Both the position numbers and the translations under genes were made by a program. Shown piece after piece: positions 22,814-30,413 of a DNA stretch of 34,915 nucleotides. The notes beneath the pieces are model-generated. The model made no database searches and was not told the DNA's origin. It worked only from the letters and a program-made list of their open reading frames with translations. Source of the stretch: Xanthomonas cassavae CFBP 4642 (GTDB lineage: Bacteria > Pseudomonadota > Gammaproteobacteria > Xanthomonadales > Xanthomonadaceae). Numbering within the stretch: position 1 is the stretch's first letter; every line of letters begins with the position of its first letter. Where the stretch lies: the NCBI RefSeq assembly GCF_000454545.1, contig NZ_CM002139.1, positions 4,672,606 through 4,707,520 of the forward strand. The letters run 5' to 3'.

Positions 22814-24385
<1,572 letters not shown>

Positions 24386-24678: not shown

Positions 24679-26016
24679 TCACGCGACGGCCTGCTGCTCG
24701 ATTCGCACGGCCGGCGCCACCGACACCGCCGGTTGCAGCAATCCCCAGGCTTCCAGCTGCTCCACCGCACGGCCGATTCCGTCCTCCTCGCGGATGCGCT
24801 GCCCCAGCGCGCGTGCCGCTGCGCGCATGCTCGGCGCGCTGGCCTGACCGATGGCATCGGCCAGGGTCTCAGGCTGCAGCCCGACCCGTGCAAGCGCCGG
24901 CGGGGCGACGCCGCGGTGGGCCAGGCAGTGCGCCCAGAACGGCTGGTCATAGCCGAACGGCAGCACCACCGACGGAATCCCCGCAGCCAGCGCCGCACCG
25001 GTGGTGCCGGCACCACCGTGATGCACGGCCACCGACACCCGCGGAAACAGCCAATCGTGCGGTGCCTGCTCCAGCTGGAAGAAGCGCTGGGCATCGTCGG
25101 ATGCGTCTTGCGCGGCCGCCAGCCCGCCCCAGCCGCTGGCCAGCAGCGCGCGTTGACCGGTCAGACGCACCGCCGCCTTGACGGTGGCGGTGAGTTGGGC
25201 CGCATCGCTGCTGATCATGCTGCCGAAGCCGATATACAGCGGCGGCGGGCCGGCCTGCAGAAACGCCTGCAGCGCGGCCGGCGGCTGCCACTGCGGCTGC
25301 GGCAACTGCCAGAACCCGCTGACCTGGGCCCGGTCCGGCCAGTCCGGCGGGCGTGGGCACAGATGCTCGCTGTAGCCGTACACCACGCGCTGCGCACTGC
25401 GATCGGGGCCACTCCACGGATACGCCGGCAGCCCCAAGGCCGGGCGCACGATGCCGTTGAGCGCCGGGCGCATCAGCTGCCAGCCGGCAAAGCTCACCGC
25501 GTGATGCAGCGCCACGCTCACCAGCCCGGGCAGGCGCACAGTGGGCATCACCATCAACGGCACATGCCGCGAAGCGGTCAGCGGCTGCAATTGCGTGAAC
25601 ACCACCGGCAGGCCATAGGCCTGGCCCAGGCTATGCGCCAGCAGGCTGGTGCTGCCGACGCCGAGAATCAGGCCGGCATCGGCACAGGCCGCGCGGCCCT
25701 GCTCGGCCCAGTCGCGCGCCCATTCCAGCAGCTGCGCACGCAAGGTGCCCCAGATGCCGCGCCAGCCACCGCGCATCTCGGCGACATCCGGATGGCCCTG
25801 CAGCAGTTTCTGGTGGTCGCCGCTGAGTGGGAAGAAGTCCAGCTCATTGGCGCGGATCAGCGCTTCGAAGTTGGCACTGGTCAGCACCCGCACCGGGTAC
25901 CCGCGCTCCTGCAAGCCACGGCCCAGCGCGATGATCGGGCGCACATCGCCATGCGTGCCCAGGGTGGCGATCAGCACCGGGCGCTGGCGTCCCGCGTTGA
26001 ACGAAGACTCAGGCAT
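24679..26016 (-). CDS. GT1-type (UGT/sterol glucosyltransferase-like) glycosyltransferase
   Basis: A 445-residue GT-B enzyme that transfers a sugar from a nucleotide donor to a small, probably hydrophobic acceptor. The N-terminal acceptor domain begins VLIATLGTHGDVRPIIALG, the hallmark of natural-product and sterol glycosyltransferases. The C-terminal donor domain has PLYIGFGSM and SVAVHHGGAGTTGAALAAG followed by PFGYDQPFWA, the nucleotide-binding signature. The ATG at 26016 overlaps the NRPS stop by 8 nt, so translation is coupled and the enzyme very likely glycosylates the NRPS product or its precursor. It resembles macrolide or sterol glycosyltransferases; the sugar and acceptor cannot be told from sequence. 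Confidence 0.88.
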   Translation of the reverse strand: MPESSFNAGRQRPVLIATLGTHGDVRPIIALGRGLQERGYPVRVLTSANFEALIRANELDFFPLSGDHQKLLQGHPDVAEMRGGWRGIWGTLRAQLLEWARDWAEQGRAACADAGLILGVGSTSLLAHSLGQAYGLPVVFTQLQPLTASRHVPLMVMPTVRLPGLVSVALHHAVSFAGWQLMRPALNGIVRPALGLPAYPWSGPDRSAQRVVYGYSEHLCPRPPDWPDRAQVSGFWQLPQPQWQPPAALQAFLQAGPPPLYIGFGSMISSDAAQLTATVKAAVRLTGQRALLASGWGGLAAAQDASDDAQRFFQLEQAPHDWLFPRVSVAVHHGGAGTTGAALAAGIPSVVLPFGYDQPFWAHCLAHRGVAPPALARVGLQPETLADAIGQASAPSMRAAARALGQRIREEDGIGRAVEQLEAWGLLQPAVSVAPAVRIEQQAVA

Positions 26017-29000
26017 ATTCGGCCACCCCGTCGCTGGCGGTGGCGATGCTGCCATCGCGCTGTGCGGCGTTCGCAGTGGCCGCGTGCAGCAGTGCACTGA
26101 GCGTGGCCGCATGCGTGGTCGACAGCATCGAGTGGTGGTCGCTGTCCAGCACGTGCAGCTGCAGGTTGCGCACGTACGGGCGCCAGGCCTGCGGCCGGTA
26201 ATCCATCCACACCGTATCGTCGCCGCCGGAGGTCATGCGCACGCTCGCTTCGACGAACACCACATCCTGGTCCAGCGGCTTGGGACGGTGACGTCGCGCC
26301 AGATGCAGGTGGTGCTGGGTCATGCCGCCCATGTCGTCCAGCAACGTGGGGCGTTGCTCGAGCAGCTGGCGCACTGCGGGCAGGTCGTTCAAGCCGTAGT
26401 GATCGCACAGCAGGCTGGCCAGTTCGGCCACCGTGGTGGGCATCGGCTGGCCGTGTGCCAGATGCAGGCCCAGCGCATGCACCGATGCACGCACGTTTTC
26501 CGATTCCGGCAGCGACGCGGCCTGCTCCAGGTGCGGATAGCTGTCGAGCATCGCCAGCAGCTCGACTTCTTCGCCTAGCGCATGCAGTTCGGCAGTGATG
26601 GCATGGGCGATCAAGCCGCCCAGCGACCAGCCGATCAATCGGTACGGCCCCTGCGGCTGCACTGTGCGCAGCCGCGCCAAGTAATCGCGCGCGATCGCCT
26701 CGATGCTTTCCGGGCGATGCTGCGGGTCGCTCAAGCCCGGCGACTGCAAGGCATACACCGGCCACTGCGGATCCAGCTGACCGAGCAAGGTGAGATACGA
26801 CCAGCCCAGGCCGACCACCGGGTGGATGCAGAACAGCGGCGGCGTACCCGGGGTGCCCGCACGCAGCGGCAACAGCACGCCGAGCGGGTCGTTCGGGGTC
26901 TGCGCGTTGCGCTTGATCACCTCGGCCAGGCCGGCAATCGTCGGCGCATGGAACAGGGTACCCAGCGGCAGTTCGACACCGAACGTCTGCGGGAAACGTG
27001 CGGCCATTTCCGCCGCGCGCAGCGAGTCGCCGCCGAGCTCGAAGAAGTTGTCTTCGACGCCTACCACTTCGATGCCCAGTACATCCTGCAGCATCGCGGC
27101 CAGCTGTTGTTCGAGCGCGTCGCGCGGCGCCACATGCGCGCGCTGCGGCAGCGCACCCGGCGACGGCAAGGCGCGGCGATCCAGCTTGCCATTGGGTGTC
27201 AGCGGCAGTACCTGCAACGGCACCCACAAGGTGGGAATCATCGACGCCGGCAGGCGCTGCTGCAGATGTGCGCGCAACAGCTCGGGCGTTGGCGTCGCGC
27301 CATGCTTGCCCACCACATACGCCAGCAACTGCGGCGCGTCGTGGTCGCCATCGCGATGACCGACCACCACCGCCTGCGCCACCTGCGAGTGCAGCAGCAA
27401 GGCGTTTTCGATTTCGGCCGGCTCCACACGATGGCCGCGGATCTTCAGTTGGGCATCGGCGCGGCCGATGAATTCCAGCATGCCGTCGCGGCGCTGACGC
27501 ACGCGGTCGCCGGTGCGGTACATGTTGCTGCCGTCGTCGGCGAACGGGTCGCGCACAAAGCGCTCGCTGGTCAGCTGGCGCTTGCCGCGATAGCCCTTGG
27601 CCACGCCCGCGCCACCGATGTACAACTCGCCGATCGCGCCGGTCGGCAGCGGTTGTCGCTGCGCATCGAGCACATAGACGCGGGTATTGAGCAGCGGCCT
27701 GCCGATCGGCGGGGCGGCAGCGTCGGTGAGCTGTAACGGCATGATGGTCGACCAGATCGTGGTTTCGGTCGGCCCGTACAACTGGGTCAGGCGCCCGACC
27801 CGGCTCAGCAACTGGGTCGCCAGTTCCGGCACCAGGGCTTCGCCGCCGACCAGGGCGTGGATACGGTCCAGCGCCAGATCCTGGTTGACCAGCAGGATGC
27901 GCCACAGCGACGGGGTCGCCTGCACCATGCTGATCTGCTCCTGCGGGATCAGCCGCGATAGGCTGCGTGGATCGTGGGTGATGCCGGCCGGTGCGATGAC
28001 CACGCGCGCGCCCACCAGCAACGGCAGATACAGCTCCAGCCCGGCGATATCGAAGGTGATGGTGGTGACCGCCAGCACGCGGTCGCGCGGACGCAATGCA
28101 AGCTCATGCTCCATCGCATGCAGGAAATTGAACAGGTTGCGATGGCTGATTTCCACACCCTTGGGCGCGCCGGTCGAGCCGGAGGTGTACAGCACATAGG
28201 CCGTACCGTCCGGCGTAGCCAGCGGCGCGATCGCCGCCGGCAGCACCGCCGGACGCGGATCCAGCCAGACCATGCCACCGAGCAGATACCGCTCGCACAA
28301 CGCCGGCTCGCAGACCAGCGCGATGGCACCGGAATCGTTGAGCATCTGCCGGTTGCGTGCGGCCGGGCTTTCCGGGTCCAGCGGCAGATACGCCGCCCCG
28401 CTCCACATCACCGCCAGCAAGGCCACCAGCAATTGCTCGCTGCGCGGCAACGCGATGGCGACCACGTCGCCGGGGCGGACACCATCGGCCACCCATTGCG
28501 CGGCGATGCGCGAGGCCAGTTCGCACAGCGTGGCGTAGTCCAGGGTGCGGTTGTCGTATTGCACCACCACTGCCGCCGGCATCAGTTCGGCACGCTGCAG
28601 CATGCCGTGCAGCAGCGTGGCCGGCTCCGGCAGCGCTGCGGTGGTGGCGTTCCAGGTCTGCAACAGGCGGCGGCGTTCCGCATCGCCCAGCACATCGATC
28701 TGGCCCAGCGCGCATTCCGGATCGGCCAGCACCGCATCGGCCAGATGGGTCAGCCGGCGGCAGTGCTCGGCCAGCTCGTCGCTGTCGTACAGCGCCGGAT
28801 TGGCATCCAGATCGAAGCGCAACGCGGCACCGTCGCCGCGCTCGTAGCAGAAGATGGTCAGATCGTCGGCCGGGCCGTTGGAGAGGTTATGCGGCATTGC
28901 ATAGGCCTGGCCAAAGCGCAGTGCGTAATCGAAGGCTTCGATGTTCACTGCCAGGCGTGCGAACTTCTGATCGATCCCGAACATGCCCAGATCGCGGCGC

Positions 29001-29992
29001 ACGTCCTCGAAGCGGTATTGCTGATGACGCAGCGCATGCCTGACCACCGAGGACACCTGCGCGAACAGCGCATGCACCGGCTGCTGCGGATCCATTTTCA
29101 GGCGCAGCGAAATCGCATTGGCCACCAGGCCTGCGGTCTGCCGGTAACGCGCATTGATGCGGCCGGTCACCGGCATGGCCAGCACCAGATCCTCGGCACC
29201 GGTGCAGCGGTAGTAATACGCGGCGATCAGCGAAATCAGCATCTGCGGCAGGCTGGCGCCATAGCCCTTGCCGAGCGCGCGCAGCCGCACCACCTGCCGC
29301 GGCGAGAACTGTCCGGTGCCCCGCAACAACCCGGTCGACAGGTGATTGCCCGGACGCGCCAGGGTCGCCGGCGGCGGCAGATCGGCCAGCTGCTGCATCC
29401 AGTAACTGCGATCGCGCTGAAAACGATCAGAGTCGCGATACTGCTGTTCCAGCTCGATCAGCGACAGCGCGCTGCCGTATTGCGCGGGCTCCGGCTCGCG
29501 ATTTTCTGCGTAGGCGTTATACAGCATCGCCATGCGCTGCATCATGATCGAGGCGCAATAGCCATCCATCACCAGATGGCTGACGCATTGCACCCACATA
29601 TGGTGGTCTTCGCCAAGGCGGAACACCGCGCAATGCCATAACGGACCGTTCTGCAAGTCTTCCGGCTTGCGGATTTCCTCGTCAACCCAATGCTCGGCGG
29701 CGTTGCGCGGGAAGGGATCTTCGCTGACGTTGAAATACGGAATCGCAGCTGTGTAGTCGGGCAGGACCACCTGATGCGGCACGCCGTCGTGCTCGGCGAT
29801 GCATAGCCGCAGTGTGTCGAATTCGCGCGTCAGCTGCATGCTGGCGCGGATCAGCAGCTGCGGATCCAGCGGGCCGAACATTTCCAGCGCTTCGGACAAC
29901 ATCAAGGTGTTGTCGGTATGCAACTTGCTGGCGACCCACAGGCCGCGTTGCGCTTTGGTCAGGGGAAACACGGGAGAGGCGTCAGTGTGCAT
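26009..29992 (-). CDS. Single-module nonribosomal peptide synthetase, C-A-T-TE, glycine code
   Basis: A 1327-residue synthetase with the EntF architecture. Condensation domain ~8-440: the active motif reads S138-H139-xxx-D143-G144, Ser replacing the first His but keeping the catalytic second. Adenylation domain ~455-940: LYTSGSTGAPKG (~601-612), YGPTETTIW, YRTGD and NGKLDR. By alignment to GrsA from memory the pocket is D648 I649 L652 Q691 L714 G716 L738 I746 W747 K936, the known glycine code. Thiolation domain: FFELGGDSL with phosphopantetheine S990. Type I thioesterase ~1040-1310: GWSLGG (S1123), D1150, H1286. The ATG at 29992 is chosen because AAGGA (30001-30005) lies 8 nt upstream; earlier in-frame ATGs lack it. 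The C domain has no upstream module, so the donor comes in trans. A PPTase must be encoded elsewhere. Confidence 0.93.
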   Translation of the reverse strand: MHTDASPVFPLTKAQRGLWVASKLHTDNTLMLSEALEMFGPLDPQLLIRASMQLTREFDTLRLCIAEHDGVPHQVVLPDYTAAIPYFNVSEDPFPRNAAEHWVDEEIRKPEDLQNGPLWHCAVFRLGEDHHMWVQCVSHLVMDGYCASIMMQRMAMLYNAYAENREPEPAQYGSALSLIELEQQYRDSDRFQRDRSYWMQQLADLPPPATLARPGNHLSTGLLRGTGQFSPRQVVRLRALGKGYGASLPQMLISLIAAYYYRCTGAEDLVLAMPVTGRINARYRQTAGLVANAISLRLKMDPQQPVHALFAQVSSVVRHALRHQQYRFEDVRRDLGMFGIDQKFARLAVNIEAFDYALRFGQAYAMPHNLSNGPADDLTIFCYERGDGAALRFDLDANPALYDSDELAEHCRRLTHLADAVLADPECALGQIDVLGDAERRRLLQTWNATTAALPEPATLLHGMLQRAELMPAAVVVQYDNRTLDYATLCELASRIAAQWVADGVRPGDVVAIALPRSEQLLVALLAVMWSGAAYLPLDPESPAARNRQMLNDSGAIALVCEPALCERYLLGGMVWLDPRPAVLPAAIAPLATPDGTAYVLYTSGSTGAPKGVEISHRNLFNFLHAMEHELALRPRDRVLAVTTITFDIAGLELYLPLLVGARVVIAPAGITHDPRSLSRLIPQEQISMVQATPSLWRILLVNQDLALDRIHALVGGEALVPELATQLLSRVGRLTQLYGPTETTIWSTIMPLQLTDAAAPPIGRPLLNTRVYVLDAQRQPLPTGAIGELYIGGAGVAKGYRGKRQLTSERFVRDPFADDGSNMYRTGDRVRQRRDGMLEFIGRADAQLKIRGHRVEPAEIENALLLHSQVAQAVVVGHRDGDHDAPQLLAYVVGKHGATPTPELLRAHLQQRLPASMIPTLWVPLQVLPLTPNGKLDRRALPSPGALPQRAHVAPRDALEQQLAAMLQDVLGIEVVGVEDNFFELGGDSLRAAEMAARFPQTFGVELPLGTLFHAPTIAGLAEVIKRNAQTPNDPLGVLLPLRAGTPGTPPLFCIHPVVGLGWSYLTLLGQLDPQWPVYALQSPGLSDPQHRPESIEAIARDYLARLRTVQPQGPYRLIGWSLGGLIAHAITAELHALGEEVELLAMLDSYPHLEQAASLPESENVRASVHALGLHLAHGQPMPTTVAELASLLCDHYGLNDLPAVRQLLEQRPTLLDDMGGMTQHHLHLARRHRPKPLDQDVVFVEASVRMTSGGDDTVWMDYRPQAWRPYVRNLQLHVLDSDHHSMLSTTHAATLSALLHAATANAAQRDGSIATASDGVAEYA

Positions 29993-30005: not shown

Positions 30006-30413
30006 CGTGTGTGGCGCGCAGTCGCCCGGTGCGCCATGTCCGCAATGCAGGCAGGGGGACGCCGGATCAGCACCTGGCCTTAAAACGTGAGGTAAGAGAT
30101 ACCGACGACCGCCAGCGCATGCCAGCGACATACGATGGAAACGCACAATGGGAATGCACCACGAAGCGACGTGCGGCGTCGCTACCACGACGTGCAACGA
30201 CGTTGCTAAAAGCACTTGTTTCCCGACAAGTTGCACAAACACTAACAATTAGCCACCGCGATAAACCGTGCAAAAATCACGAAATCCGCGTCGCCCGAAA
30301 AAATTTTTTGCTGATTTGTGATTTCAACTAGTGCTCTGGATGCATACGTCTACAGATCGCTTTTTTTGCGCGTTGCACACTACGGGACAGACTGCCATGC
30401 ATCGCGCAGCAAC

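What the first reader, a model, noticed from the sequence alone, without database searches (positions are those of the whole stretch)
24679..29992. Coupled single-module NRPS and glycosyltransferase: a possible glycosylated (acyl-)glycine pathway
The NRPS has one complete C-A-T-TE module beginning with a condensation domain that has no upstream partner, so it must take an acyl or aminoacyl donor in trans. The ten pocket residues give the glycine code (D I L Q L G L I W K) by alignment to GrsA from memory. Its stop overlaps the start of a GT1/sterol-type glycosyltransferase by 8 nt. A release thioesterase is attached. This predicts a small glycosylated product built on glycine, for instance an N-acyl-glycine glycoside or a cyclised oligomer made EntF-style. 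I know of no described Xanthomonas compound of this type.
Basis: partly seen in the sequence, partly recalled or inferred. Interest (0 to 1): 0.75.

Follow-up and report, generated by a model that had tools for sequence, protein, structure and literature searches.

The report
Glycine-lipid synthetase with sugar transferase
Nearly every Xanthomonas species examined carries a two-gene unit that probably joins fatty acids to glycine and adds a sugar, making a soap-like surface lipid similar to one known from an oil-eating marine bacterium; no such product has been reported from Xanthomonas in the papers I could search.

Summary
A one-module NRPS (C-A-T-TE, 26009-29992, minus strand) overlaps by 8 nt a sterol-type glycosyltransferase (GT, 24679-26016). 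The adenylation code is DILQLGLIWK (glycine). The C domain is closest to acyl-CoA-using starter domains, and its acyl-length gate residue is Ala, the size linked to C8-C10 acyl chains. Both genes occur in 33 of 35 Xanthomonas genomes and are missing from the same two; both are under purifying selection; the 8-nt overlap was read in 31 of 34 loci. The pair recurs in Nitrospirillum, Zhongshania, Spongiibacter and a genome of another family in the order.

The gene pair is not new: Royer et al. 2013 described it, predicted glycine + beta-hydroxy acid + sugar, and noted Alcanivorax borkumensis relatives. That bacterium makes a glycine-glucolipid, glucose-(3-hydroxyacyl)4-glycine, whose pathway a 2023 paper calls unsolved. 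An Alcanivorax NRPS in this family has the identical code and gate residue.

Best reading: a glycine-glucolipid-like cell-surface glycolipid; the usual 'entF/siderophore' label is probably wrong. Adjacent X. citri genes annotated entF and glucosyltransferase are both DSF-induced in planta. Product, sugar and chain number are inferred, and 5 of 33 NRPS copies look broken.

The parts
26009..29992 (-). Single-module NRPS (1327 aa): starter-type C, A (Gly code), carrier, thioesterase
28661..29968 (-). Condensation domain; motif SHLVMDG (second His kept, first His replaced by Ser); gate residue Ala147 at RzmA Arg148
27185..28594 (-). Adenylation domain with its C-terminal subdomain; code DILQLGLIWK
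26915..27109 (-). Carrier (PCP) domain; Ser990 (GGDSL) as phosphopantetheine site, Ser in 206 of 206 aligned relatives
26111..26842 (-). Type I thioesterase; Ser1123, Asp1150, His1286 each conserved in 204 of 206 aligned relatives
26009..26016 (-). 8-nt stop/start overlap (ATGCCTGA), conserved: translational coupling
24679..26016 (-). GT-B glycosyltransferase (445 aa), closest solved relative yeast sterol 3-beta-glucosyltransferase
30212..30352 (-). Most conserved stretch of the upstream region in 27 aligned Xanthomonas sequences (about -360 to -220 from the ATG); probably promoter/regulatory
   Evidence: no Rfam match; no sigma-70-like promoter found
23726..24385 (-). Downstream acyltransferase-3 gene, out of frame after about residue 199 here; NOT coupled to the pair across the genus, so probably not part of the system

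Best explanation
The two genes are a translationally coupled biosynthetic pair for a glycine-containing glycolipid. The A domain activates glycine onto the carrier domain; the starter-type C domain takes a medium-chain (most likely 3-hydroxy-) acyl group from acyl-CoA or acyl-ACP and amidates it onto glycine; further 3-hydroxyacyl units may be added as esters; the thioesterase frees the (oligo-3-hydroxyacyl)-glycine; the GT puts one hexose, most likely glucose from UDP-glucose, on the free terminal hydroxyl. [quoted passage not shown] Shown here: domain order, code, starter-type C, gate residue, conserved coupling, purifying selection, shared family with Alcanivorax. Inferred: glycine and acyl identity as real substrates, the iteration, the sugar, the product, its place in the cell.
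For: (1) Glycine code identical in the window and in the Alcanivorax NRPS P0252; 77 of 206 aligned relatives have exactly this code and 174 of 206 fit DILQ-x-G. (2) The C domain's best solved relatives are starter/lipid- or aryl-initiating domains: RzmA-Cs 1e-66, CDA synthetase 1.4e-51, ObiF1 2.5e-51, EntF 9.5e-46, against TycC 4e-22 and SrfA-C 9e-11; that these first ones are starter domains is from PMC7804268 passages for RzmA and CDA and recalled for the others. (3) The residue that sets acyl length in RzmA (Arg148, acetyl; CDA Met, C6; HolA Ala, C8; shorter side chains gave C8-C10, PMC7804268 passages) aligns without a gap to Ala147 here; it is Gly or Ala in 194 of 206 relatives and Ala in Alcanivorax P0252, while aryl-using EntF has Phe. 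A. borkumensis lipid has mostly 3-OH-C10 and some 3-OH-C8 (PMC10684412 passages). (4) GT: best solved match by sequence and by profile is sterol 3-beta-glucosyltransferase, 6e-44 and 2e-73. (5) Coupling: NRPS and GT each in 33 of 35 Xanthomonas genomes, absent from the same two; 8-nt overlap in 31 of 34 loci; pair also in L009, L050, L051, L055, in the last two with a phosphopantetheinyl transferase gene next, as Royer et al. report for ABO_1784-1783-1782. (6) Purifying selection: median dN/dS 0.118 (NRPS) and 0.165 (GT) over 29 comparisons each. (7) A. borkumensis makes minor alanine congeners and aglycones with Gly, and no glycine-free form was found (PMC10684412 passages and section 14 part 1), as expected if a glycine-selective A domain builds the aglycone first. 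(8) XAC3922 'entF' and XAC3921 glucosyltransferase of X. citri are both up in wild type over the rpfF mutant in planta, log2 1.42 and 1.52 (PMC6337780 passages).
Against: No product has been measured here or, in the searches made, by anyone in Xanthomonas. The link ABO_1784/1783 to the glycine-glucolipid is itself unproven in the papers seen (PMC10710537: pathway not elucidated; it names ABO_1783 and also ABO_2215 as candidate GTs). I could not obtain the A. borkumensis SK2 genes; P0252 is from 'unclassified Alcanivorax' and its neighbourhood was not seen. Identity to the window is only 42%. Xanthomonas C domains lack the first His of HHxxxDG (Ser in 16 of 17 rows, Asn in 1), and the gate is Thr or Val in 6 of those 17. 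Five of 33 NRPS copies look broken and one GT has two stops, so the function is dispensable. GT relatives without an adjacent NRPS exist (L010, L011, and L052 of Marinomonas spartinae). Royer et al. suggest the genes may have lost function where their XaPPTase is missing. That XAC3922/3921 is this locus is inferred from annotation and adjacent tags, not from sequence.
Confidence: 0.6

Rival explanations
1. Simple version: the NRPS makes a plain N-acyl-glycine with one fatty acyl group and the GT glycosylates it or its hydroxyl; no oligo-hydroxyacyl chain is built.
For: A single module with one C domain needs no iteration; Royer et al. predict one glycine, one beta-hydroxy acid and one sugar.
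Against: The only measured lipid that fits the family, that of A. borkumensis, carries four 3-hydroxyacyl units, with a three-unit aglycone also seen.
Confidence: 0.2
2. Siderophore part: the NRPS is an EntF- or DhbF-like enzyme that condenses an aryl acid with glycine (as annotated: entF, 'siderophore biosynthesis').
For: Nearest named NCBIfam models are MxcG (704 bits) and EntF (623 bits); a DHB-AMP-ligase-like protein fused to a salicylate synthase is in the same genome; annotated as iron-related in PMC6337780.
Against: Far under the cut-offs of 2300 and 2400 bits. Code is glycine-type, EntF's is DVWHFSLVDK. Gate residue Ala, EntF Phe. No MbtH protein in the genome, 0 of 1, the control rang in E. 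coli and B. subtilis. Aryl-AMP ligase at E <= 1e-120 in only 2 of 35 genus genomes, the NRPS in 33 of 35. In X. citri it goes up with DSF while siderophore receptors go down.
Confidence: 0.04
3. Cyclic product: the thioesterase joins two or more 3-hydroxyacyl-glycine units head to tail through the hydroxyls, as in serrawettin-like dilactones, and the GT acts on something else or on a free hydroxyl.
For: The EntF-like domain order and a complete thioesterase triad; single-module NRPSs that make cyclic dilactones are known (recalled).
Against: A closed ring would leave no hydroxyl for the invariably coupled GT; the Alcanivorax lipid has a free glycine carboxyl ('their free carboxyl groups').
Confidence: 0.08
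4. Relic: the pair has no working product in this strain, because the carrier domain is not activated or the C domain is dead.
For: Royer et al. propose loss of function where the XaPPTase is absent; 5 of 33 copies look broken; first His of the C motif replaced.
Against: dN/dS medians 0.118 and 0.165; overlap and catalytic second His, carrier Ser and thioesterase triad kept; two phosphopantetheinyl-transferase-superfamily genes with open frames in the genome.
Confidence: 0.08

Closest known systems
Short NRPS-glycosyltransferase pairs XALc_0364/0365 and XALc_1145/1144 of Xanthomonas albilineans (Royer et al. 2013, PMC3849588)
   Same: One C-A-PCP-TE module; GT gene overlapping its 3' end (8 bp, or 4 bp); glycine signature for XALc_0364; C domain in the starter clade; predicted glycine + beta-hydroxy acid + sugar. 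An X. albilineans NRPS in the database, P0016, is 67% identical with the same code; that it is XALc_0364 is my inference.
   Different: Different species; Royer et al. treated the campestris and citri copies as possibly non-functional, whereas the genus-wide selection and coupling seen here argue for function. They did not, in the passages I saw, connect the pair to the glycine-glucolipid.
Glycine-glucolipid of Alcanivorax borkumensis SK2 and its candidate genes ABO_1784-1783-1782
   Same: NRPS-GT order; relative P0252 from Alcanivorax has the same ten-residue code and gate residue, 42% identity over 1288 residues; a chemistry that such a pair could make.
   Different: Xanthomonas pair lacks an adjacent phosphopantetheinyl transferase; the Alcanivorax genes are not proven to make the lipid in the papers seen; chain length and sugar unknown in Xanthomonas.
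Starter condensation domains of lipopeptide synthetases (RzmA-Cs, PMC7804268)
   Same: Best solved match, 1e-66; aligned through the active site without gaps; gate position Ala as in the R148A variant that takes C8.
   Different: Ser for the first His of HHxxxDG; one module only; RzmA starts a multi-module chain.
EntF (enterobactin) and MxcG (myxochelin)
   Same: C-A-T followed by a terminal domain; EntF has a thioesterase; both are the nearest curated named models.
   Different: Serine code in EntF, aryl donor, MbtH partner, no GT; scores far under both cut-offs.
Yeast sterol 3-beta-glucosyltransferase (UGT51; PDB 5xvm, 5gl5)
   Same: Best solved match of the GT over nearly its whole length.
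   Different: Acceptor here is presumably an acyl-glycine hydroxyl, not a sterol.

Membership tests
Short NRPS-GT pair (Royer et al. 2013) | Single C-A-PCP-TE module | tested here: met
Short NRPS-GT pair (Royer et al. 2013) | GT gene overlapping the 3' end of the NRPS gene | tested here: met
   8 nt
Short NRPS-GT pair (Royer et al. 2013) | Starter-clade condensation domain | tested here: met
   By ranking against solved C domains and gate alignment; no tree with the Rausch reference set was built
Short NRPS-GT pair (Royer et al. 2013) | Glycine signature (XALc_0364 type) | tested here: met
   DILQLGLIWK
Glycine-glucolipid pathway | NRPS in one family with the Alcanivorax NRPS, same code | tested here: met
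   (P0252, 'unclassified Alcanivorax', not SK2 itself)
Glycine-glucolipid pathway | C domain fitted to medium-chain acyl donors | tested here: met
   Gate residue only; not an activity test
Glycine-glucolipid pathway | Adjacent Sfp-type phosphopantetheinyl transferase | tested here: not met
   None in the window beside the pair; two superfamily genes elsewhere in the genome
Glycine-glucolipid pathway | GT uses UDP-glucose | not testable with these tools
   Sterol glucosyltransferase is the nearest solved relative
Glycine-glucolipid pathway | Glucosyl-tetra(3-hydroxyacyl)-glycine made | not testable with these tools
   Needs mass spectrometry
EntF / enterobactin | Curated EntF model cut-off | tested here: not met
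   623 of 2400 bits
EntF / enterobactin | Serine code | tested here: not met
EntF / enterobactin | MbtH partner and aryl-AMP ligase in the genomes that have the NRPS | tested here: not met
   MbtH 0 of 1 own genome; aryl-AMP ligase 2 of 35
MxcG / myxochelin | Curated MxcG model cut-off | tested here: not met
   704 of 2300 bits
Rifamycin-inactivating glycosyltransferase Rgt | Curated Rgt model cut-off | tested here: not met
   105 of 800 bits

The most novel reading that the evidence does not exclude
Xanthomonas as a genus makes an undiscovered, quorum-sensing-controlled glycine-glucolipid on its cell surface, and this small NRPS-GT family, spread over Alcanivorax, Zhongshania, Spongiibacter, Nitrospirillum, Dyella, Lysobacter and others, is the long-missing pathway of the Alcanivorax glycine-glucolipid, with a one-module NRPS that itself works repeatedly to build an ester-linked chain of 3-hydroxy fatty acids on glycine.
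Probability: 0.35. Interest if true: 0.75.

Novelty: new member of a known kind. Interest (0 to 1): 0.5.

Why it matters
The glycine-glucolipid of A. borkumensis has been known chemically since the 1990s, and a 2023 paper still calls its pathway unsolved (PMC10710537 passages). If the pairing argued here is right, the pathway becomes testable with two gene removals. It would also give plant-associated Xanthomonas a surface lipid of a class not reported from them in the papers searched, co-regulated with DSF quorum sensing, and would correct a widespread annotation ('entF', enterobactin synthetase) that has led at least one transcriptome paper to count the gene as iron-related.

Tried and rejected
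Siderophore reading: rejected on code, gate residue, model cut-offs, MbtH and aryl-ligase distribution. Downstream acyltransferase-3 as third pathway gene: considered because it follows the GT on the same strand, rejected because it is present in 33 of 35 genomes but in a different set, kept in the two that lack the pair (G123, G129) and missing at the threshold from two that have it (G138, G152). RNA leader upstream: no Rfam match at E <= 0.1. Sigma-70 promoter: none found; the terminator-like stem at 30278-30290 is not above chance expectation (2 found, 1.6 expected). PIP box: none found upstream (no line printed). A search for the code in papers gave none. Structure prediction was not run; sequence matches to solved structures already settled the folds. 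Sampling the class for Alcanivorax-like loci gave 3 of 369 genomes including the own one, so the family is sparse; no SK2 genome was reached.

Limits of counts: the protein searches scored a capped candidate set and list only the best 120 each, so the 206-row alignment is a sample of near relatives. The 29 dN/dS pairs all have the window as one member and are not independent; they include two NRPS copies with stops (L030, L044) and leave out G135, G146 and G152, for which no locus was returned. In the tree EntF sits on a very long branch and its place is unsure. The GT threshold search over the order found 5 of 121 genomes, of which only 3 loci (L007, L008, L009) show the NRPS beside the GT.
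Full report
What is there. The NRPS runs from ATG 29992 to the stop at 26009 on the minus strand and contains one condensation, one adenylation, one carrier and one thioesterase domain. The glycosyltransferase (GT) starts at 26016 and ends at 24679; the two frames overlap by 8 nt. The database's nearest proteins, 98% identical, are named Xanthomonas arboricola. Upstream lies the biosynthetic arginine decarboxylase gene speA, closed by a terminator-like stem, so the pair is a unit of its own.

Substrates. The adenylation code is DILQLGLIWK. The same alignment columns give DVWHFSLVDK for E. coli EntF, recalled as the serine code, so the register is sound. Of 206 aligned relatives, 77 have exactly the window's code and 174 fit DILQ-x-G. 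The condensation domain is closest to solved starter domains: RzmA-Cs 1e-66, CDA 1.4e-51, ObiF1 2.5e-51, EntF 9.5e-46; elongation domains come far lower, TycC 4e-22 and SrfA-C 9e-11. In RzmA-Cs residue 148 sets the acyl length: Arg acetyl, and Ala or Gly C8 to C10 (PMC7804268, passages). The window has Ala there, in an ungapped alignment. The position is Gly or Ala in 194 of 206 relatives, though Thr or Val in 6 of the 17 Xanthomonas rows, and Phe in EntF. This favours a medium-chain fatty acyl donor over an aryl donor. The second, catalytic His of the C motif is kept; the first is Ser in 16 of 17 Xanthomonas rows. The GT's best solved relative is sterol 3-beta-glucosyltransferase.

Coupling and selection. 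NRPS and GT are each found in 33 of 35 genomes of the genus, and the same two genomes lack both. The overlap is 8 nt in 31 of 34 loci; the other 3 could not be read. Median dN/dS against the window is 0.118 for the NRPS and 0.165 for the GT in 29 comparisons each. Against this, 5 of the 33 NRPS copies carry stops, are split or are partial (G127, G135, G146, G152, G153) and one GT has two stops (G128). The downstream acyltransferase-3 gene, out of frame in the window, does not follow the pair's distribution.

Beyond the genus. The NRPS-GT order recurs in L009 (another family of the order), Nitrospirillum L050, Zhongshania L051 and Spongiibacter L055. By eye, 19 NRPS and GT clusters outside Xanthomonas in the two database lists share a longest-contig length, 7 of them on contigs under 17 kb, which suggests but does not prove adjacency. 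In L051 and L055 a phosphopantetheinyl transferase gene follows the pair and a sulfotransferase gene precedes it; in L050 the GT frame continues into an HlyD-type adaptor and is followed by an AcrB-type pump. Marinomonas spartinae L052 has a GT relative without the NRPS beside it. The family is sparse: 3 of 369 genomes of the class at E <= 1e-220, own genome included.

What is known. Royer et al. 2013 (PMC3849588; outline, passages and section 7 read) describe two such short NRPS genes in X. albilineans, each overlapping a GT by 4 or 8 bp, one with a glycine signature; they mention similar genes in X. campestris and X. axonopodis pv. citri and in A. borkumensis (ABO_1784, 1783, with a phosphopantetheinyl transferase ABO_1782), and predict glycine linked to a beta-hydroxy acid and a sugar. 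A. borkumensis makes glucosyl-tetra(3-hydroxyacyl)-glycine, and its pathway 'has not been elucidated' (PMC10710537, passages). Lipphardt et al. (PMC10684412, passages and section 14 part 1) found aglycones and minor alanine congeners and speculate that glycine is linked first and glucose last. Cui et al. 2022 is not held. Of the papers held, ABO_1784 occurs only in Royer et al. among those listed (15 of 27 listed), and 'glycine-glucolipid' occurs in 4 papers, two of them on Alcanivorax. So I found no paper that joins the two facts, but journals outside this library may.

Best explanation. The pair makes a glycine-glucolipid-like compound: glycine activated and loaded, acylated by the starter domain with a medium-chain, probably 3-hydroxylated acyl group, perhaps extended by further hydroxyacyl esters, released, and glycosylated. 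An Alcanivorax relative, P0252, has the same code and gate residue at 42% identity and lies in the same family in the tree. In X. citri, adjacent genes annotated entF (XAC3922) and glucosyltransferase (XAC3921) are both higher in wild type than in the rpfF mutant in planta, log2 1.42 and 1.52 (PMC6337780, passages); XAC3921 is also lower in a hemK mutant table, log2 -1.2 (PMC8999716, one passage). That these are the window's orthologues is inferred from annotation and tags.

Rivals. A siderophore role is unlikely: scores are far below the EntF and MxcG cut-offs, code and gate differ from EntF, the genome has no MbtH protein, and an aryl-AMP ligase occurs in only 2 of 35 genomes. The own genome's aryl-AMP ligase is fused to a salicylate synthase in a separate locus. 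A single-acyl product, a cyclic product and a non-functional relic remain open in that order.

Verdict. Observation confirmed, interpretation largely right, kind already described in 2013.

Noticed in passing
23726-24385 (-): Acyltransferase-3 gene that leaves its frame after about residue 199; a 404-aa open frame stands at the same place in X. prunicola (L048:11383-12597), and the gene is also interrupted in X. euvesicatoria (L047).
   Followed up: partly
30212-30352 (-): Stretch upstream of the NRPS more conserved than its surroundings in 27 Xanthomonas sequences, AT-rich, with an AAATCACA/TCGTGATTT-like inverted pair seen by eye; regulator unknown.
   Followed up: partly
L051:4282-5271 and L055:4399-5382: A sulfotransferase gene, 55% identical between the two, precedes the NRPS-GT-phosphopantetheinyl transferase genes in Zhongshania and Spongiibacter; a sulfated variant of the lipid is possible.
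   Followed up: partly
L050:9995-15645: In Nitrospirillum the GT frame continues into an HlyD-type adaptor and overlaps an AcrB-type pump gene, suggesting export of the product.
   Followed up: partly
G000:C6:2366000-2394000 (L136, L137): Separate large NRPS locus with a fused salicyl/DHB-AMP-ligase-like and salicylate synthase protein, a likely salicylate-capped siderophore; the ligase is found in only 2 of 35 genus genomes.
   Followed up: partly
P0064, P0071, P0081, P0090, P0092 and relatives: Some Lysobacter and other relatives of the NRPS have other codes (DIFQLTLVWK, DVLQLALVYK, and DILWLGLVLK in Dyella), so the family may use other amino acids there.
   Followed up: no
G123 and G129: The two genus genomes that lack both NRPS and GT keep the neighbouring acyltransferase gene, as if the pair had been lost together.
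   Followed up: no
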